Position numbers and translations under genes: made by a program. From the NCBI GenBank assembly GCA_027574665.1, contig CM050690.1:67055905-67119904 (forward strand): a DNA stretch of 64,000 nt, in the 5' to 3' direction. Positions within the stretch are counted from its first letter, which is position 1; every line of letters starts with the position of its first letter. The stretch comes from Rhynochetos jubatus. Its lineage: Eukaryota; Chordata; Aves; Eurypygiformes; Rhynochetidae. Below, piece by piece: positions 20,970-47,572 of this stretch. The notes beneath the pieces were generated by a model. The model was not told where the DNA came from, ran no database searches, and saw only the letters and a program-made list of their open reading frames with translations.

Positions 20970-22724
20970 ATGGCTGCAGAGCTGGACAACCGCTGTCCAA
21001 TATGCCTGGACAGCTGGGAGGAGCCCAGCTACACCATGCCATGCCTCCACCGGTTTTGCTATCCGTGTATCCGGCGGTGGGCTGACAGTCAGCCCGACTG
21101 CCCCCTCTGCAGAAGCAGGGTGACGTCCATCGTGCAGCGGGATGGCAGTTTGGAGGAGCATGTCATCCCACCACCTGCAGCAACGGGAGCTCCTGGCCAT
21201 CCAGCCACCCACCGCCTCCAGCCCCGCGCAGCTCTTGTGCGCGAACGACACCCCCTCTTCAGAAGGAGGGTGAGGTCCATCGTGCGCTCGGTGCAGTGGG
21301 ATGACAGATTGGAGGAGCATGTCATCCCACCGCATGCCCCACTGGGACATCCTGGCCATCCAGCCGCCCGCCGCCGCCAGCCCCGCGCAGCTCTTGTGCG
21401 CGAACGACACCCCCTCTTCAGAAGGAGGGTGACGTCCATCATGGGCTCGGTGCAGCGGGATGACAGATTGGAGGAGCATGTCATCCCACCGCGTGCCCCA
21501 CTGGGACATCCTGGCCATCCAGCCGCCCGCCGCCTCCACCCCCGCGCAGCTCTTGTGCGCAGACGCCGACGCCGACGCCGCCACCCCTGGCTGTCACGCT
21601 TCTGGGAACACTTAGCTCTGATCCAGCTCGCGATGCTCCGGCTGCGACAGGACCTGCAGCAGCAGCTGTTCAGGGCTGGCAGGTCGGCAAGAGCAGCAGC
21701 ACGGGCGCTCGTGCTGTCCACCCTGCAGCGCTTTGGCCTGGATGAGGACAGCCTGGTCCGGATGCTGCAGACTGACCTGCGCCAGCACCTGAGGACCTTC
21801 GTCCAGCGGCGGATTGACAGCATCGTGGACTGGTGCGGCCGTGAGGCCCGACGCTGGATGGGCCTGGGGGACCCCCGTGACGCCGAGGAGCGGGAGATCA
21901 GCCCCGCAGCTCCTCCCAGTCCTGCCGCCTCTGAAGGGGAAACTGCTGCACCCAACTCAGCCCCCTCCCACCATGAGGACAGGCAGGAGGCAGAAGAGGT
22001 TGTCCCCAGCACCTCATCAGCTGCCCTACAGGAGGATCCCGGCAGCCCCTCCCATGCCCCTGAACCCCCCCGTGCGGGGCAGGAAGAGCCTCAGGACCCC
22101 CGAGAGGAGGCTGTGCCTGGACCCTCCACGCTCAGCCAGGGCAGCCAACGCTCCCCGCAGGAGCCCCGGCAAGCACCAAAGAGGAGGGCTGATGGCCAGG
22201 TGGCCACTTCACCACCAAACAAGAGGCCAGCCCATTGGCAGGAAGAGGCACAGGACGCCCGAGAGGAGGCTGTGCCTGGGCCCTCCACGCTCAGCCAGGG
22301 CAGCCAACACTCCCCGCAGGAGCCCCGGCGAGCACCAAAGAGGAGGGCTGATGGCCAGGTGGCCACTTCCCTGCCGAAAAAGAGGCCAGCCCATCGGCAG
22401 GAAGAGGCACAGGACCCCCGAGAGGAGGCTGTGCCTGGGCCCTCCACGCTCAGCCAGGGCAGCCAACACTTCCCGCAGGAGCCCCGGCGAGCACCAAAGA
22501 GGAGGGCTGATGGCCAGGTGGCCACTTCACCACCAAACAAGAGGCCAGCCCATTGGCAGGAAGAGGCACAGGACCCCCGAGAGGAGGCTGTGCCTGGGCC
22601 CTCCACGCTCAGCCAGGGCAGCCAACACTTCCCGCAGGAGCCCCGGCGAGCACCAAAGAGGAGGGCTGATGGCCAGGTGGCCACTTCACCACCAAACAAG
22701 AGGCCAGCCCGTCGGCAACAGTAG
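20970..22724 (+). CDS. Topors-like RING protein, gene B, intact RING (unit 1)
   Basis: 584 codons from an ATG in strong Kozak context (GAGAGGATGG). Residues 9-47 form a C3HC4 RING with Cys9, Cys12, Cys25, His27, Cys30, Cys33, Cys44 and Cys47, the same spacing as TOPORS, a nuclear ubiquitin and SUMO E3 ligase. LEEHVIPP after the RING matches the TOPORS DDFKEYV region. Residues ~48-205 hold three ~53-residue repeats (RRRVTSIV..DDRLEEHVIPP..PRAALV) ending in an eight-Arg run. Residues 215-297 (QDLQQQLFRAGRSARAAARA ... LVRMLQTDLRQHLRTFVQRR) resemble the TOPORS helical region. Residues 372-583 are four 53-residue repeats, each with basic APKRRAD and KRPAHWQ patches that could act as nuclear-localisation signals. 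It is much shorter than TOPORS (~1,000 residues) and lacks its RS-rich tail. This is the only copy here with all zinc ligands, hence the best candidate for an active ligase. Confidence 0.85.
   Translation: MAAELDNRCPICLDSWEEPSYTMPCLHRFCYPCIRRWADSQPDCPLCRSRVTSIVQRDGSLEEHVIPPPAATGAPGHPATHRLQPRAALVRERHPLFRRRVRSIVRSVQWDDRLEEHVIPPHAPLGHPGHPAARRRQPRAALVRERHPLFRRRVTSIMGSVQRDDRLEEHVIPPRAPLGHPGHPAARRLHPRAALVRRRRRRRRHPWLSRFWEHLALIQLAMLRLRQDLQQQLFRAGRSARAAARALVLSTLQRFGLDEDSLVRMLQTDLRQHLRTFVQRRIDSIVDWCGREARRWMGLGDPRDAEEREISPAAPPSPAASEGETAAPNSAPSHHEDRQEAEEVVPSTSSAALQEDPGSPSHAPEPPRAGQEEPQDPREEAVPGPSTLSQGSQRSPQEPRQAPKRRADGQVATSPPNKRPAHWQEEAQDAREEAVPGPSTLSQGSQHSPQEPRRAPKRRADGQVATSLPKKRPAHRQEEAQDPREEAVPGPSTLSQGSQHFPQEPRRAPKRRADGQVATSPPNKRPAHWQEEAQDPREEAVPGPSTLSQGSQHFPQEPRRAPKRRADGQVATSPPNKRPARRQQ
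21111..21578 (+). repeat. N-terminal 53-codon repeats of gene B (unit 1)
   Basis: Three tandem copies of a module reading RRRVTSIVRSVQRDDRLEEH, then VIPP, GHPGHPA, RPRAALV. Copies 2 and 3 are 53 codons (159 bp); copy 1 lacks RSV. Each reproduces the end of the RING plus the EEHVIPP segment, so the duplication began at the RING's 3' edge. Units 3-5 have three copies, unit 2 has two, and the edge chimeras have one. Confidence 0.85.
22083..22718 (+). repeat. C-terminal 53-codon minisatellite of gene B (unit 1)
   Basis: Four tandem 159-bp copies of EEAQDPREEAVPGPSTLSQG, then SQHSPQEPRRAPKRRADGQV, then ATSPPNKRPAHWQ. Two subtypes alternate: ATSPPNKRPAHWQ and ATSLPKKRPAHRQ. Copy numbers: edge copies 2 each, unit 1 four, unit 2 six, units 3 and 4 four, unit 5 three. 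Confidence 0.9.
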
Positions 22725-23004
22725 GAGGCTGCCCCAGGTGCTGGTGACACCAACGCCGGACCTGCAGCTGGGGCACCCGCCAGCTCCAAGGGGAGCGGGA
22801 GGCTGACCTTATCAGTCCATCTCCAATCATTAAAGAATCCAACAGTGTACAAAAGCTACCGAAAGAGCCTTGGCATTCCTGACAGTGTAGCTGGTGTTGC
22901 TATCCCCAACGGTGTGGGTTTCTCCTGTGGCCTGCCATGGCTACCAGGACTCGGTCCATACTTTCCCCAGAGGTGGAAGCGAGGATGAACTCTCCCGCAG
23001 TGCC

Positions 23005-23220
23005 TCAGCCCATCCTCTTGCCTTTTTGGCAGATGGGGTGCAACACCTGTCCCTCCCTAGTCTTTGGTACCTCCCCCAACTGCAGTCTTCCAAAGATGAC
23101 AGAGGGTGGCCTGGCTGTGACATCAGCCCGCTCACTTGACACCCCCAGACAAATCCCGTCAGGGTCCTTGGGCTTGTATGGGGCAAGATTTCTTAGGAGC
23201 CCCCTGAGTTGCACGTCCTC
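23005..23220 (-). mobile_element. CR1 reverse-transcriptase fragment (unit 2)
   Basis: Same fragment as at 16,794-17,009, carried by the 6.2-kb unit. Confidence 0.75.
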
Positions 23221-24448
23221 TGCTGCTGGGATTCCTCCGCTCCTTGATCACTGCCTCGGGGACAAAACACCTGGGGGCAGCGGCAGTGAAGGCTGAGATG
23301 GAGAAGGCCCCGAGTCCCTCAGCCTCGCACGCGCCTGCTGTCGCTGCATCGCTCGGCCCGTTTGGCCAGCGGGCACGACGCAGCTCCAAGGACCCCCAAC
23401 ACCTCCGCCCCCCAGGCTGCGAGGGCGCGCCCAGCCAGGCCTGTTGACAGACGGCAGCGTCAGGGTGCTGGCGCTGCGAGCTCAGCTTATCGGCTTCGTC
23501 AACGCTGACAAAGAAAGGTCCAGAAGCTTCTCAGAGTGTCTTTCTTTTCAAAGCCAAGCACAAGGCACTGCAGGCAATGCCTTCCAGCAGGCTCTCAACA
23601 GGCCAGGAAAGCAAAAGGGGAGAATATCTTGGGGTGTGCAGTGAACTTCTTTAATGGGAATGCTGCAAGAGAGCCCTTTTCGCTCCCACGCCGCCAGCCT
23701 CTCCCTTCCCAGCACCGGAGCAAGGCTGTCCAAGCCCCTTGACCATCAGCAGGGCCGCCGGTCCTGAGGCAAAGCCAGGGGCCACGGACACAGGCCGTGC
23801 TGACAGCCCTCTCCCTGCTGGTGCCTCCACCCGCAAATGGCTCCCGGCACCCTCTAGTCACAGCCCTCTCAGCCTTCCCCTGACACCGCTCCACAACAGC
23901 GGCCCAAGCCCGCCAGCCCCAAAGCCCGCGGCCACGGCTGGCAGGCAGGAGGGCGTTGCTCTTCTCTTGTGGGGACAGGCCTGCTGCACGAAGGACGTGG
24001 CAGGTGACGGAGGCCCATCTCTCAGGCCTTGCCTTGGCCTGTGCGGACAGCAAAGCCCTAAACCCCGAGCACCCCAGGATTTCGGGAGCAATCCAGAAAC
24101 AGATTGACCGTTCAAGCAGAACACTTTTGTGCCGTGGGCTGAAATGCCCCGCCTCCCCCGGCTTCTCGCTGGGCCCACCTCTGTCCTGCTTTGAAGCCTT
24201 TCCCCAGACATACTGGCACCAGCCTGGCCCGTTCCCACAAGCCTCTCGACAACAGCCTCTCCAAAGGTCTGGGCAACCCCACACGCTTTCGCCCCACGTC
24301 CTGCAAGGACTCCCCCAGCCCTGCTGGCAGACAGCCCTGCTGGCAGACACCCCTGCAGCCTGCAAGGCCGCTGCACGGCCTTCCTGCGCGTGATCCGCCT
24401 CGGCTTTGCAGAAAAGGAAGCGGGGCTCCTGGGGGACACCAAAACGCA

Positions 24449-24746
24449 GAACGTGCCAGCAGCGGGCCCCGGTGGCAACGGCGGCCAACGGTCTGCTGGG
24501 CTGCATCAGGAGGAGTGCTGCCAGCACGTGGAGGGAGGGGGTCCTTGCCCTCTCCTCAGCACTGGTGCTGCCAGCCCTGCACTGCTGTATCCAGCTGCCC
24601 AGGACGAGAGGGACGAGGAGGTGCCGGAGAGAGCCCAGCCAAGGGCCAGCAAGATGCTGAAGGGCCTGGAGGATGTCTCCTGTGAGGAAAGGCTGGGAGA
24701 GCTGGGACTGGTCAGCCTGAACAAGAGAGGGCCCAGGGGCAGCAGC
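24449..24746 (+). mobile_element. CR1 fragment, end of ORF2 (unit 2)
   Basis: Same fragment as at 18,238-18,535. Confidence 0.85.
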
Positions 24747-25165
24747 CTCTCACCAAGGCCCCAGGAAGGGCTGGGGTGGCTTGAGGCTTGGAGCTGTCGT
24801 GACAGGCTGCTTTTGGTGCTGGCGTCATGCTCAGGCAGTTGTTCGCCACAGCTCTCGGTGGCCGACCCCAGAGCCACCAGGGGATTCTTCCCGGCCCTGC
24901 CATCTTCAGGCAGCCGGGGCACCTGGGAAGCAGACTCCCTCGCAGCAGCATAGGTGAGCTGCGATGGGAAAGCTCAGCCTGGGGTGGGGTGTTGGCAGGG
25001 TTTCCTTTCTGAGGGGCCAGGGCATGTCTTCCAGCTCTCCCTGGAGCAGCCCATGACCATGGCCACTCTTCATTTTTTAGCGCAGCACCCGCTGCTGCAG
25101 CGGCAGTGAGAGGGAGCTGCTTGTCACCCCCAGCTCCCCCCAGCCCACTGCGGCGAGTGGACAGC

Positions 25166-25882
25166 ATGGCCACAGAGCTGGAGAACCGCTGTCCCATACG
25201 CCTGCACAGCTGGGAGGAGGCCAGCTACGCCATGACGTGCCTCCACCAGTTGTGTTACGGGTGCGTCCTGCGGTGGGCTGAGGGCAAGCCCGAGTGCCCC
25301 CTGTGCAAGAGGCGGGCGACCTCCACCGTGCACTGGGTGCGGGCACACAACGACTTTGAGGAGCATGTCATCCCACACCTGCAGCTCCATCAGTCGTCGT
25401 CCAGCTGACAGGAGAAGCTCCCGGACACCCAACCGCCCACAGCCTCCCTCAGCCTGCAGCAACCTGGCTGGCAGGTGCGAAGTCGCTGCTCCAGGCTCCA
25501 GTGGGCGGGTTCTATGCCTACGTCTGGGCATAAGTCTTCCATGTCTCGGAAGAGCAGCATCCCCATCTCCCAAGGGGATGCTGCTGCACCCAACCCAGCA
25601 CCTTCCCACAATCCCAACAGACTGGGGGCAGAAGAGGTCCCGAGCACCTCATCGGCTGCCCTTCGGAAGTATCCCGGCAGCCCCTCCTCTGCCCCCAACC
25701 CCACCCACGGGCAGCAGGAAGAGCCGCAGGAGCACCCAGAGGAGGCAGTGCCCAGGACCTCCACTCCCATGCAGGGCAGCCAAGGCTCCCGGTGGGGGCC
25801 CCGGCAAGCCCCGAAGAGGAGGGCTAGCGGCCAGGAGGCCACTTCACTGCCAAACGAGAGGCCACCCCGCCGGCGACAGTAG
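25166..25882 (+). pseudogene. Topors-like gene A (unit 2)
   Basis: Same structure as the unit-1 copy: Arg at zinc-ligand position 12 and the same TGA after 80 codons (25,406-25,408). The downstream frame is intact to its own stop and ends PNERPPRRRQ, without the 1-bp deletion seen in unit 1. Residue 57 is His (STVHWV) where units 1 and 5 have Arg. Confidence 0.75.
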
Positions 25883-26644
25883 GAGGCTGCCCCAGAAGCT
25901 GGTGAGACCAGTGCTGGACCAGCAGCTGGGGTGCCCGCCAGCTCCAAGGGGACTGGGAGGCTGACAATATCAGCCCTCAGGACTCTCATCAGGATTGGCC
26001 GCTGTCTCTCCCCATCCTACCAGGCACAGCTGGAAAGTGCTTGGTCTCCCTGCCCTTGATGCCTTTCCCGTAGGCACTGGGGTGCGCTTCGATGTGCCCC
26101 GAGGCCTTCCCTGCTCCATGCCGGACCAGCCCCAGACACACAGATCCTCCTTGGCTCCCCTGAGTCCCTCTGGTCTGTGGGCCTCCGCCCTGCCCAGGAC
26201 CCCAAACGGGACGCAGTGCCGGGATGAGGCCTGGTGGGTGCTGAGCGGGGGGATCACCCTCGTGCCGCCTGGCTGGGGGAGAGGGAGAGGAGGAAACGCG
26301 CGAGAGGGAGCCAAGTGCTGCTGTGACCCCCGTGGGAGCCCAGGGGCCTGGCCAGCAGTGCTGGGGCGTGGGGGGAGCCTGTGGGACTTTGTCCTGCAGC
26401 CTCCCAGGGAGGCAGGAGGTGTCACCCTGTCAACCCTCTTGCTGCAGGTGCCTGGAGACGGCTGCCCCAGCCAGAGCGAGCTGACAGGGCCCTGGGAAGA
26501 CACGGCCGAGGCCTCGGTGCCTGGCGTGAAACACCGATGCTGGGCACAAGCCAGGAGATGGGGGGATGGAGTGGGCAGTGGCGCTGTGGGAACCCCAGAC
26601 AAGTGAGCTGGGGCTGCAGGGCTGCTGGGCCGAGGGTTGCCCAT

Positions 26645-26743
26645 TGTGATATCACTGAGCGATGGTTCCAATGAGGTATGGTCCCCAACGATGGGTTGGT
26701 TCTGTTGTCGCCGACGGGTGGACTGTGATGTCACCGAGCGATG
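26645..26743 (+). promoter_or_regulatory. Paired CRE-like elements (unit 2)
   Basis: Identical pair; the spacer has one change (CCCCAACGATGG). Confidence 0.45.
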
Positions 26744-27181: not shown

Positions 27182-29095
27182 ATGGCTGCAGAGCTGGACA
27201 ACCGCTGTCCAATATACCTGGACAGCTGGGAGGAGCCCAGCTACACCATGCCATGCCTCCACCGGTTTTGCTATCCGTGTATCCGGCGGTGGGCTGACAG
27301 TCGGCCCGACTGCCCCCTCTGCAGAAGGAGGGTGACGTCCATCGTGCAGCGGGATGACAGATTGGAGGAGCATGTCATCCCACCACCTGCAGCAACGGGA
27401 GCTCCTGGCCATCCAGCCGCCCACCGCCCCCAGCCCCGCGCAGCTCTTGTGTGCGAACGACACCCCTTCTTCAGAAGGAGGGTGACATCCATCGTGCGCT
27501 CAGTGCAGCGGGATGACAGATTGGAGGAGCATGTCATCCCACCGCGTGCCCCACTGGGACATCCTGGCCATCCAGCCGCCCGCCGCCTCCACCCCCGCGC
27601 AGCTCTTGTGCACAGACGACAACGATGACGACGCCACCCCTGGCTGTCACGCTTCTGGGAACACTTAGCTCTGATCCAGCTCACGATGCTCCGGCTGCGA
27701 CAGGACCTGCAGCAGCAGCTGTTCAGGGCTGGCAGGTCGGCAAGAGCAGCAGCACGGGCGCTCGTGCTGTCCACCCTGCAGCGCTTTGGCCTGGATGAGG
27801 ACAGCCTGGTCCGGATGCTGCAGACTGACCTGCGCCAGCACCTGAGGACCTTCATCCAGCGGCGGATTGACAGCATTGTGGACTGGTGCGGCCGTGAGGC
27901 CCGACGCTGGATGGGCCTGGGGGACCCCCGTGACGCCGAGGAGCGGGAGATCAGCCCCGCAGCTCCTCCCAGTCCTGCCGCCTCTGAAGGGGAAGCTGCT
28001 GCACCCAACTCAGCCCCCTCCCACCATGAGGACAGGCAGGAGGCAGAAGAGGTTGTCCCCAGCACCCCATCAGCTGCTCTACAGGAGGATCCCGGCAGCC
28101 CCTCCCATGCCCCTGAACCCCCCCGTGCGGGGCAGGAAGAGCCTCAGGACCCCCGAGAGGAGGCTGTGCCTGGACCCTCCACGCTCAGCCAGGGCAGCCA
28201 ACGCTCCCTGCAGGAGCCCCGGCAAGCACCAAAGAGGAGGGCTGATGGCCAGGTGGCCACTTCACCACCAAACAAGAGGCCAGCCCATTGGCAGGAAGAG
28301 GCACAGGACGCCCGAGAGGAGGCTGTGCCTGGGCCCTCCACGCTCAGCCAGGGCAGCCAACACTCCCCGCAGGAGCCCCGGCGAGCACCAAAGAGGAGGG
28401 CTGATGGCCAGGTGGCCACTTCCCTGCCGAAAAAGAGGCCAGCCCATCGGCAGGAAGAGGCACAGGACCCCCGAGAGGAGGCTGTGCCTGGACCCTCCAC
28501 GCTCAGCCAGGGCAGCCAACACTCCCCGCAGGAGCCCCGGCGAGCACCAAAGAGGAGGGCTGATGGCCAGGTGGCCACTTCCCTGCCGAAAAAGAGGCCA
28601 GCCCATCGGCAGGAAGAGGCACAGGACCCCCGAGAGGAGGCTGTGCCTGGACCCTCCACGCTCAGCCAGGGCAGCCAACACTCCCCGCAGGAGCCCCGGC
28701 AAGCACCAAAGAGGAGGGCTGATGGCCAGGTGGCCACTTCACCACCAAACAAGAGGCCAGCCCATTGGCAGGAAGAGGCACAGGACCCCCGAGAGGAGGC
28801 TGTGCCTGGGCCCTCCACGCTCAGCCAGGGCAGCCAACACTCCCCGCAGGAGCCCCGGCAAGCACCAAAGAGGAGGGCTGATGGCCAGGTGGCCACTTCA
28901 CCACCAAACAAGAGGCCAGCCCATTGGCAGGAAGAGGCACAGGACCCCCGAGAGGAGGCTGTGCCTAGGCCCTCCACGCTCAGCCAGGGCAGCCAACACT
29001 CCCCGCAGGAGCCCCGGCAAGCACCAAAGAGGAGGGCTGATGGCCAGGTGGCCACTTCACCACCAAACAAGAGGCCAGCCCGTCGGCAACAGTAG
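27182..29095 (+). pseudogene. Topors-like gene B with nonsense codon (unit 2)
   Basis: The full frame would be 637 codons, but a CGA in the Arg run has become TGA at 27,626-27,628, leaving a 148-residue product that ends just after the N-terminal repeats. The rest is open in the same frame to 29,095. In the RING, Cys12 is Tyr (CPIYLDSW) while Cys33 and Arg35 are kept. It has two N-terminal repeats where others have three, and six C-terminal 53-residue repeats, the highest number here; the last begins with VPRPSTL instead of VPGPSTL. A downstream ATG at 27,686 could start a RING-less protein of 469 residues. Confidence 0.8.
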
Positions 29096-31536: not shown

Positions 31537-32253
31537 ATGGCCACAGAGCTGGAGAACCGCTGTCCCATACGCCTGCACAGCTGGGAGGAGGCCAGCTACG
31601 CCATGACGTGCCTCCACCAGTTGTGTTACGGGTGCGTCCTGCGGTGGGCTGAGGGCAAGCCCGAGTGCCCCCTGTGCAAGAGGCGGGCGACCTCCACCGT
31701 GCACTGGGTGCGGGCACACAACGACTTTGAGGAGCATGTCATCCCACACCTGCAGCTCCATCAGTCGTCGTCCAGCTGACAGGAGAAGCTCCCGGACACC
31801 CAACCGCCCACAGCCTCCCTCAGCCTGCAGCAACCTGGCTGGCAGGTGCGAAGTCGCTGCTCCAGGCTCCAGTGGGCGGGTTCTATGCCTACGTCTGGGC
31901 ATAAGTCTTCCATGTCTCGGAAGAGCAGCATCCCCATCTCCCAAGGGGATGCTGCTGCACCCAACCCAGCACCTTCCCACAATCCCAACAGACTGGGGGC
32001 AGAAGAGGTCCCGAGCACCTCATCGGCTGCCCTTCGGAAGTATCCCGGCAGCCCCTCCTCTGCCCCCAACCCCACCCACGGGCAGCAGGAAGAGCCGCAG
32101 GAGCACCCAGAGGAGGCAGTGCCCAGGACCTCCACTCCCATGCAGGGCAGCCAAGGCTCCCGGTGGGGGCCCCGGCAAGCCCCGAAGAGGAGGGCTAGCG
32201 GCCAGGAGGCCACTTCACTGCCAAACGAGAGGCCACCCCGCCGGCGACAGTAG
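31537..32253 (+). pseudogene. Topors-like gene A (unit 3)
   Basis: Same as unit 2, including Arg12, His57, the TGA at 31,777-31,779 and the intact downstream frame. Confidence 0.75.
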
Positions 32254-33552: not shown

Positions 33553-35307
33553 ATGGCTGCAGAGCTGGACAACCGCTGTCCAATATACCTGGACAGCTGG
33601 GAGGAGCCCAGCTACACCATGCCATGCCTCCACCGGTTTTGCTATCCGTATATCTGGCGGTGGGCTGACAGTCGGCCCGACTGCCCCCTCTGCAGAAGGA
33701 GGGTGACGTCCATCGTGCAGCGGGATGACAGATTGGAGGAGCATGTCATCCCACCACCTGCAGCAACGGGAGCTCCTGGCCATCCAGCCACCCACCGCCT
33801 CCAGCCCCGCGCAGCTCTTGTGCGCGAACGACACCCCCTCTTCAGAAGGAGGGTGACGTCCATCGTGCGCTCGGTGCAGTGGGATGACAGATTGGAGGAG
33901 CATGTCATCCCACCACCTGCAGCAACGGGAGCTCCTGGCCATCCAGCCGCCCACCGCCCCCAGCCCCGCGCAGCTCTTGTGTGCGAACGACACCCCTTCT
34001 TCAGAAGGAGGGTGACATCCATCGTGCGCTCAGTGCAGCGGGATGACAGATTGGAGGAGCATGTCATCCCACCGCGTGCCCCACTGGGACATCCTGGCCA
34101 TCCAGCCGCCCGCCGCCTCCACCCCCGCGCAGCTCTTGTGCACAGACGACAACGACGACGACGCCACCCCTGGCTGTCACGCTTCTGGGAACACTTAGCT
34201 CTGATCCAGCTCGCGATGCTCCGGCTGCGACAGGACCTGCAGCAGCAGCTGTTCAGGGCTGGCAGGTCAGCAAGAGCAGCAGCACGGGCGCTCGTGCTGT
34301 CCACCCTGCAGCGCTTTGGCCTGGATGAGGACAGCCTGGTCCGGATGCTGCAGACTGACCTGCGCCAGCACCTGAGGACCTTCATCCAGCGGCGGATTGA
34401 CAGCATTGTGGACTGGTGCGGCCGTGAGGCCCGACGCTGGATGGGCCTGGGGGACCCCCGTGACGCCGAGGAGCGGGAGATCAGCCCCGCAGCTCCTCCC
34501 AGTCCTGCCGCCTCTGAAGGGGAAGCTGCTGCACCCAACTCAGCCCCCTCCCACCATGAGGACAGGCAGGAGGCAGAAGAGGTTGTCCCCAGCACCCCAT
34601 CAGCTGCCCTACAGGAGGATCCTGGCAGCCCCTCCCATGCCCCTGAACCCACCCGTGCGGGGCAGGAAGAGCCTCAGGACCCCCGAGAGGAGGCTGTGCC
34701 TGGACCCTCCACGCTCAGCCAGGGCAGCCAACGCTCCCCGCAGGAGCCCCGGCAAGCACCAAAGAGGAGGGCTGATGGCCAGGTGGCCACTTCACCACCA
34801 AACAAGAGGCCAGCCCATTGGCAGGAAGAGGCACAGGACGCCCGAGAGGAGGCTGTGCCTGGGCCCTCCACGCTCAGCCAGGGCAGCCAACACTCCCCGC
34901 AGGAGCCCCGGCGAGCACCAAAGAGGAGGGCTGATGGCCAGGTGGCCACTTCCCTGCCGAAAAAGAGGCCAGCCCATCGGCAGGAAGAGGCACAGGACCC
35001 CCGAGAGGAGGCTGTGCCTGGACCCTCCACGCTCAGCCAGGGCAGCCAACACTCCCCGCAGGAGCCCCGGCAAGCACCAAAGAGGAGGGCTGATGGCCAG
35101 GTGGCCACTTCACCACCAAACAAGAGGCCAGCCCATTGGCAGGAAGAGGCACAGGACCCCCGAGAGGAGGCTGTGCCTGGGCCCTCCACGCTCAGCCAGG
35201 GCAGCCAACACTCCCCGCAGGAGCCCCGGCGAGCACCAAAGAGGAGGGCTGATGGCCAGGTGGCCACTTCACCACCAAACAAGAGGCCAGCCCGTCGGCA
35301 ACAGTAG
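33553..35307 (+). CDS. Topors-like gene B, RING lacking two zinc ligands (unit 3)
   Basis: 584 codons, three N-terminal and four C-terminal 53-residue repeats. Two zinc ligands are lost: Cys12 to Tyr (CPIYLD) and Cys33 to Tyr (CYPYIWRW), and Arg35 is Trp. A folded RING and E2 binding are unlikely, yet the rest of the frame is open and the promoter, splice donor and ATTAAA are intact. The protein could still use its helical and repeat regions, or act as a decoy; both are inference. Confidence 0.7.
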   Translation: MAAELDNRCPIYLDSWEEPSYTMPCLHRFCYPYIWRWADSRPDCPLCRRRVTSIVQRDDRLEEHVIPPPAATGAPGHPATHRLQPRAALVRERHPLFRRRVTSIVRSVQWDDRLEEHVIPPPAATGAPGHPAAHRPQPRAALVCERHPFFRRRVTSIVRSVQRDDRLEEHVIPPRAPLGHPGHPAARRLHPRAALVHRRQRRRRHPWLSRFWEHLALIQLAMLRLRQDLQQQLFRAGRSARAAARALVLSTLQRFGLDEDSLVRMLQTDLRQHLRTFIQRRIDSIVDWCGREARRWMGLGDPRDAEEREISPAAPPSPAASEGEAAAPNSAPSHHEDRQEAEEVVPSTPSAALQEDPGSPSHAPEPTRAGQEEPQDPREEAVPGPSTLSQGSQRSPQEPRQAPKRRADGQVATSPPNKRPAHWQEEAQDAREEAVPGPSTLSQGSQHSPQEPRRAPKRRADGQVATSLPKKRPAHRQEEAQDPREEAVPGPSTLSQGSQHSPQEPRQAPKRRADGQVATSPPNKRPAHWQEEAQDPREEAVPGPSTLSQGSQHSPQEPRRAPKRRADGQVATSPPNKRPARRQQ

Positions 35308-37748: not shown

Positions 37749-38465
37749 ATGGCCACAGAGCTGGAGAACCGCTGTCCCATACGCCTGCACAGCTGGGAGG
37801 AGGCCAGCTACGCCATGACGTGCCTCCACCAGTTGTGTTACGGGTGCGTCCTGCGGTGGGCTGAGGGCAAGCCCGAGTGCCCCCTGTGCAAGAGGCGGGC
37901 GACCTCCACCGTGCACTGGGTGCGGGCACACAACGACTTTGAGGAGCATGTCATCCCACACCTGCAGCTCCATCAGTCGTCGTCCAGCTGACAGGAGAAG
38001 CTCCCGGACACCCAACCGCCCACAGCCTCCCTCAGCCTGCAGCAACCTGGCTGGCAGGTGCGAAGTCGCTGCTCCAGGCTCCAGTGGGCGGGTTCTATGC
38101 CTACGTCTGGGCATAAGTCTTCCATGTCTCGGAAGAGCAGCATCCCCATCTCCCAAGGGGATGCTGCTGCACCCAACCCAGCACCTTCCCACAATCCCAA
38201 CAGACTGGGGGCAGAAGAGGTCCCGAGCACCTCATCGGCTGCCCTTCGGAAGTATCCCGGCAGCCCCTCCTCTGCCCCCAACCCCACCCACGGGCAGCAG
38301 GAAGAGCCGCAGGAGCACCCAGAGGAGGCAGTGCCCAGGACCTCCACTCCCATGCAGGGCAGCCAAGGCTCCCGGTGGGGGCCCCGGCAAGCCCCGAAGA
38401 GGAGGGCTAGCGGCCAGGAGGCCACTTCACTGCCAAACGAGAGGCCACCCCGCCGGCGACAGTAG
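37749..38465 (+). pseudogene. Topors-like gene A (unit 4)
   Basis: Same as unit 2, including Arg12, His57, the TGA at 37,989-37,991 and the intact downstream frame. Confidence 0.75.
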
Positions 38466-39227: not shown

Positions 39228-39326
39228 TGTGATATCACTGAGCGATGGTTCCAATGAGGTATGGTCCCCAGCGATGGGTTGGTTCTGTTGTCGCCGACGG
39301 GTGGACTGTGATGTCACCGAGCGATG
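39228..39326 (+). promoter_or_regulatory. Paired CRE-like elements (unit 4)
   Basis: Identical to unit 1. Confidence 0.45.
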
Positions 39327-39764: not shown

Positions 39765-41519
39765 ATGGCTGCAGAGCTGGACAACCGCTGTCCAATATAC
39801 CTGGACAGCTGGGAGGAGCCCAGCTACACCATGCCATGCCTCCACCGGTTTTGCTATCCGTATATCTGGCGGTGGGCTGACAGTCGGCCCGACTGCCCCC
39901 TCTGCAGAAGGAGGGTGACGTCCATCGTGCAGCGGGATGACAGATTGGAGGAGCATGTCATCCCACCACCTGCAGCAACGGGAGCTCCTGGCCATCCAGC
40001 CACCCACCGCCTCCAGCCCCGCGCAGCTCTTGTGCGCGAACGACACCCCCTCTTCAGAAGGAGGGTGACGTCCATCGTGCGCTCGGTGCAGTGGGATGAC
40101 AGATTGGAGGAGCATGTCATCCCACCACCTGCAGCAACGGGAGCTCCTGGCCATCCAGCCGCCCACCGCCCCCAGCCCCGCGCAGCTCTTGTGTGCGAAC
40201 GACACCCCTTCTTCAGAAGGAGGGTGACATCCATCGTGCGCTCAGTGCAGCGGGATGACAGATTGGAGGAGCATGTCATCCCACCGCGTGCCCCACTGGG
40301 ACATCCTGGCCATCCAGCCGCCCGCCGCCTCCACCCCCGCGCAGCTCTTGTGCACAGACGACAACGACGACGACGCCACCCCTGGCTGTCACGCTTCTGG
40401 GAACACTTAGCTCTGATCCAGCTCGCGATGCTCCGGCTGCGACAGGACCTGCAGCAGCAGCTGTTCAGGGCTGGCAGGTCGGCAAGAGCAGCAGCACGGG
40501 CGCTCGTGCTGTCCACCCTGCAGCGCTTTGGCCTGGATGAGGACAGCCTGGTCCGGATGCTGCAGACTGACCTGCGCCAGCACCTGAGGACCTTCATCCA
40601 GCGGCGGATTGACAGCATTGTGGACTGGTGCGGCCGTGAGGCCCGACGCTGGATGGGCCTGGGGGACCCCCGTGACGCCGAGGAGCGGGAGATCAGCCCC
40701 GCAGCTCCTCCCAGTCCTGCCGCCTCTGAAGGGGAAGCTGCTGCACCCAACTCAGCCCCCTCCCACCATGAGGACAGGCAGGAGGCAGAAGAGGTTGTCC
40801 CCAGCACCCCATCAGCTGCTCTACAGGAGGATCCCGGCAGCCCCTCCCATGCCCCTGAACCCCCCCGTGCGGGGCAGGAAGAGCCTCAGGACCCCCGAGA
40901 GGAGGCTGTGCCTGGACCCTCCACGCTCAGCCAGGGCAGCCAACGTTCCCCGCAGGAGCCCCGGCAAGCACCAAAGAGGAGGGCTGATGGCCAGGTGGCC
41001 ACTTCACCACCAAACAAGAGGCCAGCCCATTGGCAGGAAGAGGCACAGGACGCCCGAGAGGAGGCTGTGCCTGGGCCCTCCACGCTCAGCCAGGGCAGCC
41101 AACACTCCCCGCAGGAGCCCCGGCAAGCACCAAAGAGGAGGGCTGATGGCCAGGTGGCCACTTCCCTGCCGAAAAAGAGGCCAGCCCATCGGCAGGAAGA
41201 GGCACAGGACCCCCGAGAGGAGGCTGTGCCTGGACCCTCCACGCTCAGCCAGGGCAGCCAACACTCCCCGCAGGAGCCCCGGCGAGCACCAAAGAGGAGG
41301 GCTGATGGCCAGGTGGCCACTTCCCTGCCGAAAAAGAGGCCAGCCCATCGGCAGGAAGAGGCACAGGACCCCCGAGAGGAGGCTGTGCCTAGGCCCTCCA
41401 CGCTCAGCCAGGGCAGCCAACACTCCCCGCAGGAGCCCCGGCAAGCACCAAAGAGGAGGGCTGATGGCCAGGTGGCCACTTCACCACCAAACAAGAGGCC
41501 AGCCCGTCGGCAACAGTAG
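39765..41519 (+). CDS. Topors-like gene B, RING lacking two zinc ligands (unit 4)
   Basis: 584 codons with the same RING changes as unit 3 (Tyr12, Tyr33, Trp35), three N-terminal and four C-terminal repeats. Its last repeat carries VPRPSTL, as in unit 2, which shows exchange between units. Confidence 0.7.
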   Translation: MAAELDNRCPIYLDSWEEPSYTMPCLHRFCYPYIWRWADSRPDCPLCRRRVTSIVQRDDRLEEHVIPPPAATGAPGHPATHRLQPRAALVRERHPLFRRRVTSIVRSVQWDDRLEEHVIPPPAATGAPGHPAAHRPQPRAALVCERHPFFRRRVTSIVRSVQRDDRLEEHVIPPRAPLGHPGHPAARRLHPRAALVHRRQRRRRHPWLSRFWEHLALIQLAMLRLRQDLQQQLFRAGRSARAAARALVLSTLQRFGLDEDSLVRMLQTDLRQHLRTFIQRRIDSIVDWCGREARRWMGLGDPRDAEEREISPAAPPSPAASEGEAAAPNSAPSHHEDRQEAEEVVPSTPSAALQEDPGSPSHAPEPPRAGQEEPQDPREEAVPGPSTLSQGSQRSPQEPRQAPKRRADGQVATSPPNKRPAHWQEEAQDAREEAVPGPSTLSQGSQHSPQEPRQAPKRRADGQVATSLPKKRPAHRQEEAQDPREEAVPGPSTLSQGSQHSPQEPRRAPKRRADGQVATSLPKKRPAHRQEEAQDPREEAVPRPSTLSQGSQHSPQEPRQAPKRRADGQVATSPPNKRPARRQQ

Positions 41520-41799
41520 GAGGCTGCCCCAGGTGCTGGTGACACCAACGCCGGACCTGCAGCTGGGGCACCCGCCAGCTCCAAGGGGAGCGGGAGGCTG
41601 ACCTTATCAGTCCATCTCCAATCATTAAAGAATCCAACAGTGTACAAAAGCTACCGAAAGAGCCTTGGCATTCCTGACAGTGTAGCTGGTGTTGCTATCC
41701 CCAACGGTGTGGGTTTCTCCTGTGGCCTGCCATGGCTACCAGGACTCGGTCCATACTTTCCCCAGAGGTGGAAGCGAGGATGAACTCTCCCGCAGTGCC

Positions 41800-42015
41800 T
41801 CAGCCCATCCTCTTGCCTTTTTGGCAGATGGGGTGCAACACCTGTCCCTCCCTAGTCTTTGGTACCTCCCCCAACTGCAGTCTTCCAAAGATGACAGAGG
41901 GTGGCCTGGCTGTGACATCAGCCCGCTCACTTGACACCCCCAGACAAATCCCGTCAGGGTCCTTGGGCTTGTACGGGGCAAGATTTCTTAGGAGCCCCCT
42001 GAGTTGCACGTCCTC
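41800..42015 (-). mobile_element. CR1 reverse-transcriptase fragment (unit 5)
   Basis: Same fragment as at 16,794-17,009. Confidence 0.75.
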
Positions 42016-43243
42016 TGCTGCTGGGATTCCTCCGCTCCTTGATCGCTGCCTCGGGGACGAAACACCTGGGGGCAGCGGCAGTGAAGGCTGAGATGGAGAA
42101 GGCCCCGAGTCCCTCAGCCTCGCACGCGCCTGCTGTCGCTGCATCGCTCGGCCCGTTTGGCCAGCGGGCACGACGCAGCTCCAAGGACCCCCAACACCTC
42201 CGCCCCCCAGGCTGCGAGGGCGCGCCCAGCCAGGCCTGCTGACAGACGGCAGCGTCAGGGTGCTGGCGCTGCGAGCTCAGCTTATCGGCTTCGTCAACGC
42301 TGACAAAGAAAGGTCCAGAAGCTTCTCAGAGTGTCTTTCTTTTCAAAGCCAAGCACAAGGCACTGCAGGCAATGCCTTCCAGCAGGCTCTCAACAGGCCA
42401 GGAAAGCAAAAGGGGAGAATATCTTGGGGTGTGCAGTGAACTTCTTTAATGGGAATGCTGCAAGAGAGCCCCTTTCGCTCCCACGCCGCCAGCCTCTCCC
42501 TTCCCAGCACCGGAGCAAGGCTGTCCAAGCCCCTTGACCATCAGCAGGGCCGCCGGTCCTGAGGCAAAGCCAGGGGCCACGGACACAGGCCGTGCTGACA
42601 GCCCTCTCCCTGCTGGTGCCTCCACCCGCAAATGGCTCCCGGCACCCTCTAGTCACAGCCCTCTCAGCCTTCCCCTGACACCGCTCCACAACAGCGGCCC
42701 AAGCCCGCCAGCCCCAAAGCCCGCGGCCACGGCTGGCAGGCAGGAGGGCGTTGCTCTTCTCTTGTGGGGACAGGCCTGCTGCACGAAGGACGTGGCAGGT
42801 GACGGAGGCCCATCTCTCAGGCCTTGCCTTGGCCTGTGCGGACAGCAAAGCCCTAAACCCCGAGCACCCCAGGATTTCGGGAGCAATCCAGAAACAGATT
42901 GGCCGTTCAAGCAGAACACTTTTGTGCCGTGGGCTGAAATGCCCCGCCTCCCCCGGCTTCTCGCTGGGCCCACCTCTGTCCTGCTTTGAAGCCTTTCCCC
43001 AGACATACTGGCACCAGCCTGGCCCGTTCCCACACGCCTCTCGACAACAGCCTCTCCAAAGGTCTGGGCAACCCCACACGCTTTCGCCCCACGTCCTGCA
43101 AGGACTCCCCCAGCCCTGCTGGCAGACAGCCCTGCTGGCAGACACCCCTGCAGCCTGCAAGGCCGCTGCACGGCCTTCCTGCGCGTGATCCGCCTCGGCT
43201 TTGCAGAAAAGGAAGCGGGGCTCCTGGGGGACACCAAAACGCA

Positions 43244-43541
43244 GAACGTGCCAGCAGCGGGCCCCGGTGGCAACGGCGGCCAACGGTCTGCTGGGCTGCA
43301 TCAGGAGGAGTGCTGCCAGCACGTGGAGGGAGGGGGTCCTTGCCCTCTCCTCAGCGCTGGTGCTGCCAACCCTGCACTGCTGTATCCAGCTGCCCAGGAC
43401 GAGAGGGACGAGGAGGTGCCGGAGAGAGCCCAGCCAAGGGCCAGCAAGATGCTGAAGGGCCTGGAGGATGTCTCCTGTGAGGAAAGGCTGGGAGAGCTGG
43501 GACTGGTCAGCCTGAACAAGAGAGGGCCCAGGGGCACCAGC
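43244..43541 (+). mobile_element. CR1 fragment, end of ORF2 (unit 5)
   Basis: Same fragment and same variant as unit 3. Confidence 0.85.
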
Positions 43542-43960
43542 CTCTCACCAAGGCCCCAGGAAGGGCTGGGGTGGCTTGAGGCTTGGAGCTGTCGTGACAG
43601 GCTGCTTTTGGTGCTGGCGTCATGCTCAGGCAGTTGTTCGCCACAGCTCTCGGTGGCCGACCCCAGAGCCACCAGGGGATTCTTCCCGGCCCTGCCATCT
43701 TCAGGCAGCCGGGGCACCTGGGAAGCAGACTCCCTCGCAGCAGCATAGGTGAGCTGCGATGGGAAAGCTCAGCCTGGGGTGGGGTGTTGGCAGGGTTTCC
43801 TTTCTGAGGGGCCAGGGCATGTCTTCCAGCTCTCCCTGGAGCAGCCCATGACCATGGCCACTCTTCATTTTTTAGCGCAGCACCCGCTGCTGCAGCGGCA
43901 GTGAGAGGGAGCTGCTTGTCACCCCCAGCTCCCCCCAGCCCACTGCGGCGAGTGGACAGC

Positions 43961-44677
43961 ATGGCCACAGAGCTGGAGAACCGCTGTCCCATACGCCTGC
44001 ACAGCTGGGAGGAGGCCAGCTACGCCATGACGTGCCTCCACCAGTTGTGTTACGGGTGCGTCCTGCGGTGGGCTGAGGGCAAGCCCGAGTGCCCCCTGTG
44101 CAAGAGGCGGGCGACCTCCACCGTGCGCTGGGTGCGGGCACACAACGACTTTGAGGAGCATGTCATCCCACACCTGCAGCTCCATCAGTCATCGTCCAGC
44201 TGACAGGAGAAGCTCCCGGACACCCAGCCGCCCACAGCCTCCCTCAGCCTGCAGCAACCTGGCTGGCAGGTGCGAAGTCGCTGCTCCAGGCTCCAGTGGG
44301 CAGGTTCTATGCCTACGTCTGGGCATAAGTCTTCCGTGTCTCGGAAGAGCAGCATCCCCATCTCCCAAGGGGATGCTGCTGCACCCAACCCAGCACCTTC
44401 CCACAATCCCAACAGACTGGGGGCAGAAGAGGTCCCGAGCACCTCATCGGCTGCCCTTCGGAAGTATCCCGGCAGCCCCTCCTCTGCCCCCAACCCCACC
44501 CACGGGCAGCAGGAAGAGCCGCAGGAGCACCCAGAGGAGGCAGTGCCCAGGACCTCCACTCCCATGCAGGGCAGCCAAGGCTCCCGGTGGGGGCCCCGGC
44601 AAGCCCCGAAGAGGAGGGCTAGCGGCCAGGAGGCCACTTCACTGCCAAACGAGAGGCCACCCCGCCGGCGACAGTAG
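43961..44677 (+). pseudogene. Topors-like gene A (unit 5)
   Basis: Arg12, Arg57 as in unit 1, TGA at 44,201-44,203 and an intact downstream frame. A few private changes occur after the stop (for example GTGGGCAGGTTC for GTGGGCGGGTTC). Confidence 0.75.
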
Positions 44678-45439
44678 GAGGCTGCCCCAGAAGCTGGTGA
44701 GACCAGTGCTGGACCAGCAGCTGGGGTGCCCGCCAGCTCCAAGGGGACTGGGAGGCTGACAATATCAGCCCTCAGGGCTCTCATCAGGATTGGCCGCTGT
44801 CTCTCCCCATCCTACCAGGCACAGCTGGAAAGAGCTTGGTCTCCCTGCCCTTGATGCCTTTCCCGTAGGCACTGGGGTGCGCTTCGATGTGCCCCGAGGC
44901 CTTCCCTGCTCCATGCCGGACCAGCCCCAGACACACAGATCCTCCTTGGCTCCCCTGAGTCCCTCTGGTCTGTGGGCCTCCGCCCTGCCCAGGACCCCAA
45001 ACGGGACGCAGTGCCGGGATGAGGCCTGGTGGGTGCTGAGCGGGGGGATCACCCTCGTGCCGCCTGGCTGGGGGAGAGGGAGAGGAGGAAACGCGCGAGA
45101 GGGAGCCAAGTGCTGCTGTGACCCCCGTGGGAGCCCAGGGGCCTGGCCAGCAGTGCTGGGGCGTGGGGGGAGCCTGTGGGACTTTGTCCTGCAGCCTCCC
45201 AGGGAGGCAGGAGGTGTCACCCTGTCAACCCTCTTGCTGCAGGTGCCTGGAGACGGCTGCCCCAGCCAGAGCGAGCTGACAGGGCCCTGGGAAGACACGG
45301 CCGAGGCCTCGGTGCCTGGCGTGAAACACCGATGCTGGGCACAAGCCAGGAGATGGGGGGATGGAGTGGGCAGTGGCGCTGTGGGAACCCCAGACAAGTG
45401 AGCTGGGGCTGCAGGGCTGCTGGGCCGAGGGTTGCCCAT

Positions 45440-45538
45440 TGTGATATCACTGAGCGATGGTTCCAATGAGGTATGGTCCCCAGCGATGGGTTGGTTCTGT
45501 TGTCGCCGACGGGTGGACTGTGATGTCACCGAGCGATG
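45440..45538 (+). promoter_or_regulatory. Paired CRE-like elements (unit 5)
   Basis: Identical to unit 1. Confidence 0.45.
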
Positions 45539-45976
45539 CAATGTCTCCAGGCATCAAAGTCCCACCCAGCCGGCCCGTGCCCTCACTCCAGCTGAGCAGT
45601 CTGCGAGGCTGCACTGCTCACAGGAGCCCTGGTGCTTGGGTCCTGATTGTGGAGTTCGTCCTGGCAGTTTTCCGCTCGCTGCTCCAGAGCAGCGGGAGGA
45701 CTTTCCCCGGCCGGGCCTGCCAGCTGCAGGCAGCCGGGGCACCCAAGGGCCACACTCGCAGCAGCTGAGGTGAGCTGGGAGGGGAAAGCCCAACCTGGGG
45801 AGCTGGGAGGTTTCCTTCCTGAGCGGCCTGGGCCTTTCTTCCCCTCCCGCCTGGCCCAGTGGCTGACTGCGGCCCCTCTCCCCTTTCCAACGAGACACCG
45901 GCTGCTGCTGCAGCAGTGAGAGGGAGCGTCCCGACACCCCCAGCTCCCCCCAGGCCCACCGCAGCACACAGAGAGG

Positions 45977-47572
45977 ATGGCTGCAGAGCTGGACAACCGC
46001 TGTCCAATATACCTGGACAGCTGGGAGGAGCCCAGCTACACCATGCCATGCCTCCACCGGTTTTGCTATCCGTGTATCTGGCGGTGGGCTGACAGTCGGC
46101 CCGACTGCCCCCTCTGCAGAAGGAGGGTGACGTCCATCGTGCAGCGGGATGACAGATTGGAGGAGCATGTCATCCCACCACCTGCAGCAACGGGAGCTCC
46201 TGGCCATCCAGCCACCCACCGCCTCCAGCCCCGCGCAGCTCTTGTGCGCGAACGACACCCCCTCTTCAGAAGGAGGGTGACGTCCATCGTGCGCTCGGTG
46301 CAGTGGGATGACAGATTGGAGGAGCATGTCATCCCACCACCTGCAGCAACGGGAGCTCCTGGCCATCCAGCCGCCCACCGCCCCCAGCCCCGCGCAGCTC
46401 TTGTGTGCGAACGACACCCCTTCTTCAGAAGGAGGGTGACATCCATCGTGCGCTCAGTGCAGCGGGATGACAGATTGGAGGAGCATGTCATCCCACCGCG
46501 TGCCCCACTGGGACATCCTGGCCATCCAGCCGCCCGCCGCCTCCACCCCCGCGCAGCTCTTGTGCACAGACGACAACGACGACGACGCCACCCCTGGCTG
46601 TCACGCTTCTGGGAACACTTAGCTCTGATCCAGCTCGCGATGCTCCGGCTGCGACAGGACCTGCAGCAGCAGCTGTTCAGGGCTGGCAGGTCGGCAAGAG
46701 CAGCAGCACGGGCGCTCGTGCTGTCCACCCTGCAGCGCCTTGGCCTGGATGAGGACAGCCTGGTCCGGATGCTGCAGACTGACCTGCGCCAGCACCTGAG
46801 GACCTTCATCCAGCGGCGGATTGACAGCATTGTGGACTGGTGCGGCCGTGAGGCCCGACGCTGGATGGGCCTGGGGGACCCCCGTGACGCCGAGGAGCGG
46901 GAGATCAGCCCCGCAGCTCCTCCCAGTCCTGCCGCCTCTGAAGGGGAAGCTGCTGCACCCAACTCAGCCCCCTCCCACCATGAGGACAGGCAGGAGGCAG
47001 AAGAGGTTGTCCCCAGCACCCCATCAGCTGCCCTACAGGAGGATCCCGGCAGCCCCTCCCATGCCCCTGAACCCCCCCATGCGGGGCAGGAAGAGCCTCA
47101 GGACCCCCGAGAGGAGGCTGTGCCTGGACCCTCCACGCTCAGCCAGGGCAGCCAACGCTCCCCGCAGGAGCCCCGGCAAGCACCAAAGAGGAGGGCTGAT
47201 GGCCAGGTGGCCACTTCACCACCAAACAAGAGGCCAGCCCATTGGCAGGAAGAGGCACAGGACGCCCGAGAGGAGGCTGTGCCTGGGCCCTCCACGCTCA
47301 GCCAGGGCAGCCAACACTCCCCGCAGGAGCCCCGGCGAGCACCAAAGAGGAGGGCTGATGGCCAGGTGGCCACTTCACCACCAAACAAGAGGCCAGCCCA
47401 TTGGCAGGAAGAGGCACAGGACCCCCGAGAGGAGGCTGTGCCTGGACCCTCCACGCTCAGCCAGGGCAGCCAACACTCCCCGCAGGAGCCCCGGCGAGCA
47501 CCAAAGAGGAGGGCTGATGGCCAGGTGGCCACTTCACCACCAAACAAGAGGCCAGCCCGTCGGCAACAGTAG
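45977..47572 (+). CDS. Topors-like gene B, RING lacking one zinc ligand (unit 5)
   Basis: 531 codons: Tyr12 and Trp35 but Cys33 kept (CYPCIWRW), three N-terminal repeats and only three C-terminal repeats. One extra change, Phe to Leu, occurs in the helical region (LQRLGLDED). The frame is fully open. Confidence 0.7.
   Translation: MAAELDNRCPIYLDSWEEPSYTMPCLHRFCYPCIWRWADSRPDCPLCRRRVTSIVQRDDRLEEHVIPPPAATGAPGHPATHRLQPRAALVRERHPLFRRRVTSIVRSVQWDDRLEEHVIPPPAATGAPGHPAAHRPQPRAALVCERHPFFRRRVTSIVRSVQRDDRLEEHVIPPRAPLGHPGHPAARRLHPRAALVHRRQRRRRHPWLSRFWEHLALIQLAMLRLRQDLQQQLFRAGRSARAAARALVLSTLQRLGLDEDSLVRMLQTDLRQHLRTFIQRRIDSIVDWCGREARRWMGLGDPRDAEEREISPAAPPSPAASEGEAAAPNSAPSHHEDRQEAEEVVPSTPSAALQEDPGSPSHAPEPPHAGQEEPQDPREEAVPGPSTLSQGSQRSPQEPRQAPKRRADGQVATSPPNKRPAHWQEEAQDAREEAVPGPSTLSQGSQHSPQEPRRAPKRRADGQVATSPPNKRPAHWQEEAQDPREEAVPGPSTLSQGSQHSPQEPRRAPKRRADGQVATSPPNKRPARRQQ

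What the first reader, a model, noticed from the sequence alone, without database searches (positions are those of the whole stretch)
20970..47572. RING zinc ligands decay across gene-B copies while the frames stay open
Only the copy at 20,970 keeps all eight ligands. Units 2-5 have Cys12 to Tyr, units 3 and 4 also Cys33 to Tyr, and both edge copies lack the RING. Apart from unit 2, frames of 388-584 codons remain open. Either the ligase function is dispensable and another part (helical region, repeats) is retained, or most copies are very young pseudogenes.
Basis: partly seen in the sequence, partly recalled or inferred. Interest (0 to 1): 0.8.

Follow-up and report, generated by a model that had tools for sequence, protein, structure and literature searches.

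The report
Young Topors-like array with decaying RINGs
A bird genome carries a very young row of near-identical copies of a ubiquitin-ligase-like gene in which most copies have lost a zinc-holding residue; the data fit recent copies drifting without detectable constraint, and give no support for a new zinc-independent job.

Summary
Five tandem 6.2-kb units each carry a Topors-like gene. Unit 1 alone keeps all eight RING ligands; units 2-5 have Cys12Tyr, units 3 and 4 also Cys33Tyr, and both edge copies lack the RING. The proteins belong to a bird family called Topors-like or TOPRS ligase; 50 of 56 relatives found keep all eight ligands and none shows a ligand substitution.

The pattern is less than it looks. 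Two ligand mutations, nested on one lineage and multiplied by duplication or exchange, explain it. Open frames say little: 4 of 6 long spacer ORFs without a Pfam match stay open in all five units. N:S in single-copy domains is 11:4, omega 0.89 (0.27-3.85); RING 4:0 and helical 3:2 cannot be told apart. The gene body varies about three times more than flanks, at silent and replacement sites alike, and units recombine, so exchange with diverged copies is likelier than selection. Each unit also holds an older broken Topors-like relic with Cys12Arg.

Best reading: a young array of mostly non-ligase paralogues drifting towards pseudogenes; unit 1 is the only window copy able to be an E3. A dominant-negative role is untested.

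The parts
20970..22724 (+). Gene B unit 1 (584 codons): Topors-like RING + helical protein, all eight ligands (C12 codon 21003-21005, C33 codon 21066-21068)
27182..29095 (+). Gene B unit 2: Tyr12, Cys33; 159-nt in-frame deletion; TGA at 27626-27628; six tail repeats; a 469-codon ORF begins at 27686
33553..35307 (+). Gene B unit 3 (584 codons): Tyr12 (33586-33588), Tyr33 (33649-33651), Trp35
39765..41519 (+). Gene B unit 4 (584 codons): Tyr12 (39798-39800), Tyr33 (39861-39863), Trp35
45977..47572 (+). Gene B unit 5 (531 codons): Tyr12 (46010-46012), Cys33 kept, Trp35; one tail repeat fewer than units 1, 3 and 4
15383..16513 (+). Edge copy E1 (376 codons): N-terminus comes from sequence like the units' spacer, RING missing; helical region and two tail repeats kept
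   Evidence: spacer-like stretch 85.7% over 223 bp; no Pfam match
61281..62411 (+). Edge copy E2 (376 codons), in the second copy of a larger duplication
18955..19667 (+). Older Topors-like relic in unit 1: RING with C12 to Arg, frameshift, helical region mostly gone
25166..25879 (+). Same relic, unit 2
31537..32250 (+). Same relic, unit 3
37749..38462 (+). Same relic, unit 4 (its RING part still matches Pfam zf-C3HC4_2, 32.2 bits)
43961..44674 (+). Same relic, unit 5

Best explanation
This is a young tandem array of a bird Topors-like gene (N-terminal C3HC4 RING, helical domain, Ser/Pro-rich linker and basic tail). Shown: the units are about 99% identical at DNA level, carry variants in conflicting combinations, and differ inside the gene by 159-nt blocks that do not shift the frame. 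Shown: Cys12Tyr sits in four units and Cys33Tyr in two of those, in a nested order that needs one mutation each. Shown: protein change among copies cannot be told from neutral in the three single-copy domains tested. Inferred: Cys12 and Cys33 are both ligands of zinc site 1 (ligands 1, 2, 5, 6 of the RING cross-brace, established knowledge), so units 2-5 should not fold site 1 properly and should not pass ubiquitin; only unit 1 could be an E3. Inferred: frames remain open because the copies are too young and exchange sequence too often to have collected stops, so most are paralogues drifting towards pseudogenes, like the older broken Topors-like relic in every unit.
For: Self-comparison: long stretches of unit against unit are 98.8-99.4% identical; gene-only comparisons with unit 1 fall to 96.3%. 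Nested RING sites. N:S 11:4 against an expected replacement fraction of 0.755, omega 0.89 (0.27-3.85); with edge copies 14:6, omega 0.76 (0.28-2.40). One nonsense change among 16 single-copy changes against about 0.9 expected. Four of six spacer ORFs without a Pfam match open in 5 of 5 units. 89 of 171 pairs of informative sites are incompatible with one tree, so units exchange sequence. Silent and replacement sites are both about threefold above the flank-based expectation (4 against 1.35, P 0.048; 11 against 4.14, P 0.004), as expected for imported variation rather than selection on the protein. Edge-type alleles turn up singly in unit 2 (codon 221), unit 3 (367) and unit 5 (368). Relic with Cys12Arg and frameshift in all five units. 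50 of 56 relatives keep all eight ligands, none substituted.
Against: The counts are small, so purifying selection with omega near 0.3 is not excluded. Two ligand hits among four missense changes is mildly more than chance (P 0.063). Taking all 57 variable gene sites rather than the single-copy ones, 3.3 nonsense changes would be expected and P(at most 1) is 0.15: still compatible with neutrality, but leaning to fewer stops than chance. The donor copies assumed for exchange were not seen. No expression data.
Confidence: 0.72

Rival explanations
1. RING-dead copies are kept as competitors: they retain the helical domain and tail, bind the targets or partners of the active ligase, and block it (dominant negative).
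For: In human TOPORS a RING-mutant protein had a dominant-negative effect when the normal protein was present (PMC11402782, passages). Helical region and tail are retained in units 1, 3, 4, 5 and both edge copies.
Against: No constraint detected on the helical domain. The human RING mutations (I105, L140, K142) spared the zinc ligands. SUMO-binding motifs, which human TOPORS needs, were not found outside the helical region by a crude pattern scan. Youth alone explains retention.
Confidence: 0.1
2. The RING is dispensable and a RING-independent function of the helical domain and repeats is under selection. In human TOPORS the RING is obligatory for p53 ubiquitination but optional for p53 sumoylation.
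For: Review statement in PMC7916862 (passages, citing Weger 2005). Both edge copies keep an in-frame 376-codon ORF without a RING. N:S leans the predicted way, RING 4:0 and helical 3:2. Relatives P0030 and P0056 also lack the RING or its first half, though P0056 comes from a 1,120-base contig and may be a fragment.
Against: RING 4:0 against helical 3:2 is not a significant contrast. In relatives the RING is the better conserved domain, and P0045 keeps the RING but has lost the second half of the helical domain. PMC11402782 found little SUMO-ligase activity of TOPORS in vitro (passages).
Confidence: 0.1
3. Diversifying selection: copies are driven apart in the gene body, as in conflict-driven multicopy sex-chromosome genes.
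For: Single-copy gene body varies about three times more than flanks (15 of 702 against 35 of 4457, P 0.003; against the relic 7 of 1001, P 0.015). Long stem of the window lineage in the family tree (0.48 against a median end branch of 0.13).
Against: Silent sites are raised about as much as replacement sites, and omega is not above 1. Three of the variable sites carry edge-copy alleles, pointing to exchange.
Confidence: 0.06
4. Assembly artefact: collapsed or chimeric copies create false combinations of variants.
For: Near-identical tandem units are hard to assemble, and conflicting combinations of variants are also what mis-joined reads would give; the reads were not available.
Against: Tyr12 is in four units and Tyr33 in two, each with their own private differences. 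There are no N runs in the window.
Confidence: 0.05

Closest known systems
Avian 'E3 ubiquitin-protein ligase Topors-like' / 'TOPRS ligase' proteins (e.g. P0002 Grus japonensis, P0005 Haliaeetus albicilla, P0017 Fregata magnificens)
   Same: Same start (MAAELDNRCPICLDSWEE...), RING, post-RING stretch, helical domain, Ser/Pro linker and basic C-terminus; several family members in one species, e.g. Grus and Mycteria
   Different: The window copies of units 1-5 are longer: extra post-RING modules and three to six copies of a 53-residue basic tail repeat (two in the edge copies). The lineage sits on a long stem, has Q or R at residue 41 where all 29 aligned relatives have K, and four of five units have lost a zinc ligand
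Human TOPORS, ubiquitin/SUMO ligase and SUMO-targeted ubiquitin ligase (PMC11402782, PMC7916862: passages only)
   Same: C3HC4 RING of the CPIC...CPLC type (recalled); residues matching the E2-contact positions mutated in human TOPORS (I105, L140, K142) are present as I11, L46, R48 (mapping by motif, my inference)
   Different: Much shorter than the human protein (recalled length); no SUMO-binding motif found outside the helical region by a crude scan; no direct alignment to human TOPORS was run
Herpesvirus ICP0-type RING (1chc, equine herpesvirus 1)
   Same: Closest solved structure by sequence (E 1.6e-13) and first by Foldseek (E 1.7e-3), RING only
   Different: The match ends with the RING (query residues 5-57); ordinary RING similarity, not a claim of origin
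Young multicopy gene arrays on sex chromosomes (e.g. the chicken Z amplicon; recalled, not read)
   Same: Tandem near-identical genes exchanging sequence
   Different: Linkage of this window was not shown; chicken TOPORS is listed on Z in PMC1876622 (passage of a table)

Membership tests
Avian Topors-like family | N-terminal C3HC4 RING with eight ligands | tested here: met
   Met in unit 1 only (Pfam zf-C3HC4_2, 48.2 bits). Not met in units 2-5 (C12Y, C33Y) or in E1/E2
Avian Topors-like family | Helical domain after the RING (FGLDED... and E-A-R region) | tested here: met
   Aligned with relatives; helices between 206 and 296, pLDDT 71-83 for residues 211-300 except the last block
Avian Topors-like family | Basic C-terminus ...APKRRA...KRPPR | tested here: met
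   Present, repeated two to six times
Functional RING ubiquitin ligase | All eight zinc ligands | tested here: met
   Unit 1 only; not met in units 2-5 and edge copies
Functional RING ubiquitin ligase | Ubiquitin transfer with an E2 | not testable with these tools
   Needs an in vitro assay
SUMO-targeted ubiquitin ligase (TOPORS/RNF4 type) | SUMO-interacting motifs outside the RING | tested here: inconclusive
   A pattern scan of seven copies finds hits only inside the helical domain; the pattern is crude
Pseudogene | Frame-breaking mutations | tested here: inconclusive
   Unit 2 has one stop; units 1, 3, 4, 5 and both edge copies have none. The relics are broken in all five units
Pseudogene | No constraint on the protein | tested here: inconclusive
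   omega 0.89, interval 0.27-3.85
Pseudogene | No transcript or protein | not testable with these tools
   No RNA or protein data on hand

The most novel reading that the evidence does not exclude
Tandem exchange is manufacturing RING-dead Topors-like decoys on a bird chromosome: a Tyr12 allele is being spread through the array because copies that bind partners but cannot pass ubiquitin damp the active ligase, a gene family that supplies its own inhibitors.
Probability: 0.07. Interest if true: 0.75.

Novelty: new member of a known kind. Interest (0 to 1): 0.3.

Why it matters
It is a clear case of how a tandem array can carry a disabling allele into most copies with two mutations while most frames still look healthy, so open frames in young arrays should not be read as evidence of function. 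It also gives markers (codons 12, 33, 35, 41) with which expression and turnover of single copies could be followed. If the decoy reading were true, it would show a multicopy gene producing its own dominant-negative forms.

Tried and rejected
RING-independent selection on the helical domain: tested by N:S and by domain divergence, not supported. CpG decay as the cause of ligand loss: the C12 and C33 changes are G-to-A in TGCC and TGTA contexts, not CpG (sequence); R35W is at a CpG. Diversifying selection: silent sites are raised as well. Open frames as proof of function: spacer ORF control; two of those six ORFs overlap the relic, and no Pfam match does not prove that an ORF is not a gene.

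Tools that gave little: no relative encoded in viral contigs (86 pattern matches, none confirmed). Pfam gave no match for the helical region alone at E up to 10. Foldseek and VIA-align matched the RING; the other residues were barely tested, so nothing is claimed about the fold of the helical part. All three protein searches scored only the roughly 8,000 candidates sharing most words, so the 56 relatives are not a census. Paper searches (listings only, open-licence papers only) showed no report of this array: 'TOPORS, birds, sex chromosome, amplification' 2 papers; two of 'TOPORS, ARL13B, PGM5' 27 papers, 20 listed, none on birds by title; 'Topors-like, avian, multi-copy...' 1,662 papers with two terms, none of the 15 listed holding 'Topors-like'; 'ampliconic, Z chromosome, birds, testis, tandem' 7 papers; 'TOPORS, W chromosome' 1 paper.

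Choices that affect counts: the N:S test uses codons 1-48, 205-305 and 306-390. The post-RING modules (49-198), the Arg run (199-204) and the tail repeats were left out because they look as if they exchange among themselves; this was decided after seeing the table, and the N:S tallies were made by hand from it. Searches used 16 changes including the nonsense at codon 202, just outside the 702 nt; with 15 the result holds (P 0.0009 against the flank spectrum, 0.003 against flanks). In one search fourteen of nineteen rows of one fork of the tree were used: the two window rows, P0052 (long), P0019 and P0030 (incomplete RING) were left out. P0045, which lacks half of the helical domain, had inflated the helical spread there, so the comparison was repeated without it (13 rows); the earlier ratios were RING 1.8-2.2, helical 1.5, interval 0.72-2.38. 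In one search P0053-P0055 and the short P0050 and P0056 were left out.
Full report
What is there. The window holds five tandem units of about 6.2 kb, each with one copy of 'gene B', and two edge copies in a larger duplication (7869-14514 repeats at 54258-60859, 99.0%, and 14962-18101 at 60860-64000, 99.4%). Gene B encodes an N-terminal RING (Pfam zf-C3HC4_2, 48.2 bits in unit 1, 35.6 in unit 3, 41.7 in unit 5, no match in E1), a stretch of post-RING modules, a helical domain, a Ser/Pro linker and two to six copies of a 53-residue basic tail repeat.

What family. Three protein searches gave 56 relatives; those with an organism name are all birds, called 'E3 ubiquitin-protein ligase Topors-like', 'TOPRS ligase', uncharacterized, or now and then another ligase name. 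The second search used the RING-less part of an edge copy, so it was not conditioned on a RING; 26 of its 27 hits still carry a Pfam RING. Of the 56 proteins, 49 match the full eight-ligand pattern; P0049 has all eight with one extra residue; four begin at a methionine inside the RING and keep the remaining six ligands; P0030 and P0056 lack the RING or its first half; none has a ligand substituted. So Cys12 and Cys33 are ancestral and the tyrosines derived. Unit 1 is not pristine: it has Gln41 (Arg41 in units 2-5) where all 29 aligned relatives have Lys, and Ser49 where the other units have Arg.

How many events. For units 1-5 codon 12 reads C Y Y Y Y, codon 35 R R W W W, codon 33 C C Y Y C. 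These three sites fit one nested order: Y12, then W35, then Y33. So two ligand mutations, not a decay running independently through copies, account for the finding. Both ligands belong to the first zinc site of the RING cross-brace (established knowledge), so that site was probably already lost after Y12. The rest of the unit does not follow one tree: 89 of 171 pairs of informative sites are incompatible, and the commonest pattern groups units 2 and 4 (7 of 19 sites). Units therefore exchange sequence by unequal crossing-over or conversion (or are mis-joined), which can carry an allele through an array.

Do open frames mean anything. Little. Of six ORFs (161-303 aa) in the spacer, none with a Pfam match, four are open in all five units and two in four of five. 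About 5.8% of random changes in this gene give a stop, so 16 single-copy changes predict about 0.9; one was seen (unit 2). For all 57 variable gene sites 3.3 would be expected and P(at most 1) is 0.15. Inside the gene the indels are whole numbers of 159 nt and so do not shift the frame.

Is any domain constrained. With a mutation spectrum from 35 flank differences, the neutral replacement fraction is 0.755. Observed: RING 4:0, helical 3:2, linker 4:2; total 11:4, omega 0.89 (0.27-3.85); with edge copies 14:6, omega 0.76 (0.28-2.40). RING against helical: Fisher P 0.44. On the longer scale, distance to 13 relatives is 1.8-2.1 times the within-group value for the RING and 1.6-1.7 times for the helical domain; the bootstrap interval of the ratio of the two runs from 0.67 to 2.07 over the three copies tested. 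The lineage as a whole is fast (stem 0.48 changes per column against a median end branch of 0.13).

An unexpected contrast. The single-copy gene body differs among units more than the flanks: 15 of 702 against 35 of 4457 (P 0.003), and more than the region of the broken relic, 7 of 1001 (P 0.015). Without unit 1 the contrast is weaker, 9 of 702 against 26 of 4457 (P 0.046). Silent and replacement sites are raised alike. I read this as import of variation from diverged copies, which share the gene body but not the spacer; single edge-type alleles in units 2, 3 and 5 (codons 221, 367, 368) agree. In unit 1 the block of differences at codons 121-160 looks like replacement of one post-RING module by another (by eye).

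The relic. About 1.3-2.0 kb upstream of every gene B lies an older Topors-like copy: leader, start, RING with CPIR in place of CPIC, a frameshift after the RING, most of the helical region gone, tail still recognisable. Its RING is nearer to other birds (52 of 67 residues with P0006) than to unit 1 (38 of 64). It shows that broken Topors-like copies are carried along in these units.

Structure. The model of unit 1, residues 1-339 (28-row alignment), has mean pLDDT 61.8 and pTM 0.34; residues 21-50 are above 90, the helical domain about 71-83, the modules mostly below 50. Foldseek and VIA-align place the RING among ordinary ligase RINGs; the rest was barely tested.

Mechanism and rivals. Best: a young array of mostly non-ligase paralogues, unit 1 the only window copy able to be an E3 (0.72). 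Rivals: dominant-negative decoys (0.10; human RING-mutant TOPORS is dominant negative, PMC11402782, passages); RING-independent role (0.10; in a review the RING is optional for p53 sumoylation by TOPORS, PMC7916862, passages, but PMC11402782 saw little SUMO-ligase activity); diversifying selection (0.06); assembly artefact (0.05).

Where it lies. A phosphoglucomutase-like first exon lies at 2-640 on the minus strand (Pfam PGM_PMM_I; the name PGM5 and its Z linkage in birds are recalled). Chicken TOPORS is listed on Z (PMC1876622, passage of a table). A dozen or so relatives lie on contigs of 74-101 Mb, which would suit Z, but others lie on contigs of 15, 45 and 207 Mb or on short ones. Sex-chromosome linkage is therefore plausible but not shown. 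The species is not identified.

Noticed in passing
   Followed up: yes
11612-13004 and the repeat at 57.3-59.2 kb: Co-duplicated gene resembling ARL13B (name recalled; weak Pfam Arf match E 0.0018, under its cut-off), with a long 21-nt repeat coding for charged heptads; the part after the GTP-binding loop looks altered (by eye).
   Followed up: partly
2-640 (minus strand): Phosphoglucomutase-like exon (Pfam PGM_PMM_I 1.6e-6), probably PGM5 exon 1 (recalled); suggests the array sits beside a gene recalled as Z-linked in birds.
   Followed up: partly
20970-47572: Single-copy parts of gene B vary about three times more among units than flanks or the relic, at silent and replacement sites alike; the donors of this variation were not identified.
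   Followed up: partly
units 1-5: Informative sites most often group units 2 and 4 against 1, 3 and 5 (7 of 19 sites), hinting at duplication by pairs or long exchange tracts.
   Followed up: no
gene B residues 49-198 and 391 onwards: Both the post-RING indel and the tail repeat have a 159-nt length, so copy-number change does not shift the frame.
   Followed up: no
P0045 (Columba livia), P0034 (Phalacrocorax aristotelis): Bird relatives with an intact RING whose helical region is cut short (P0045) or looks disrupted (P0034, by eye).
   Followed up: partly
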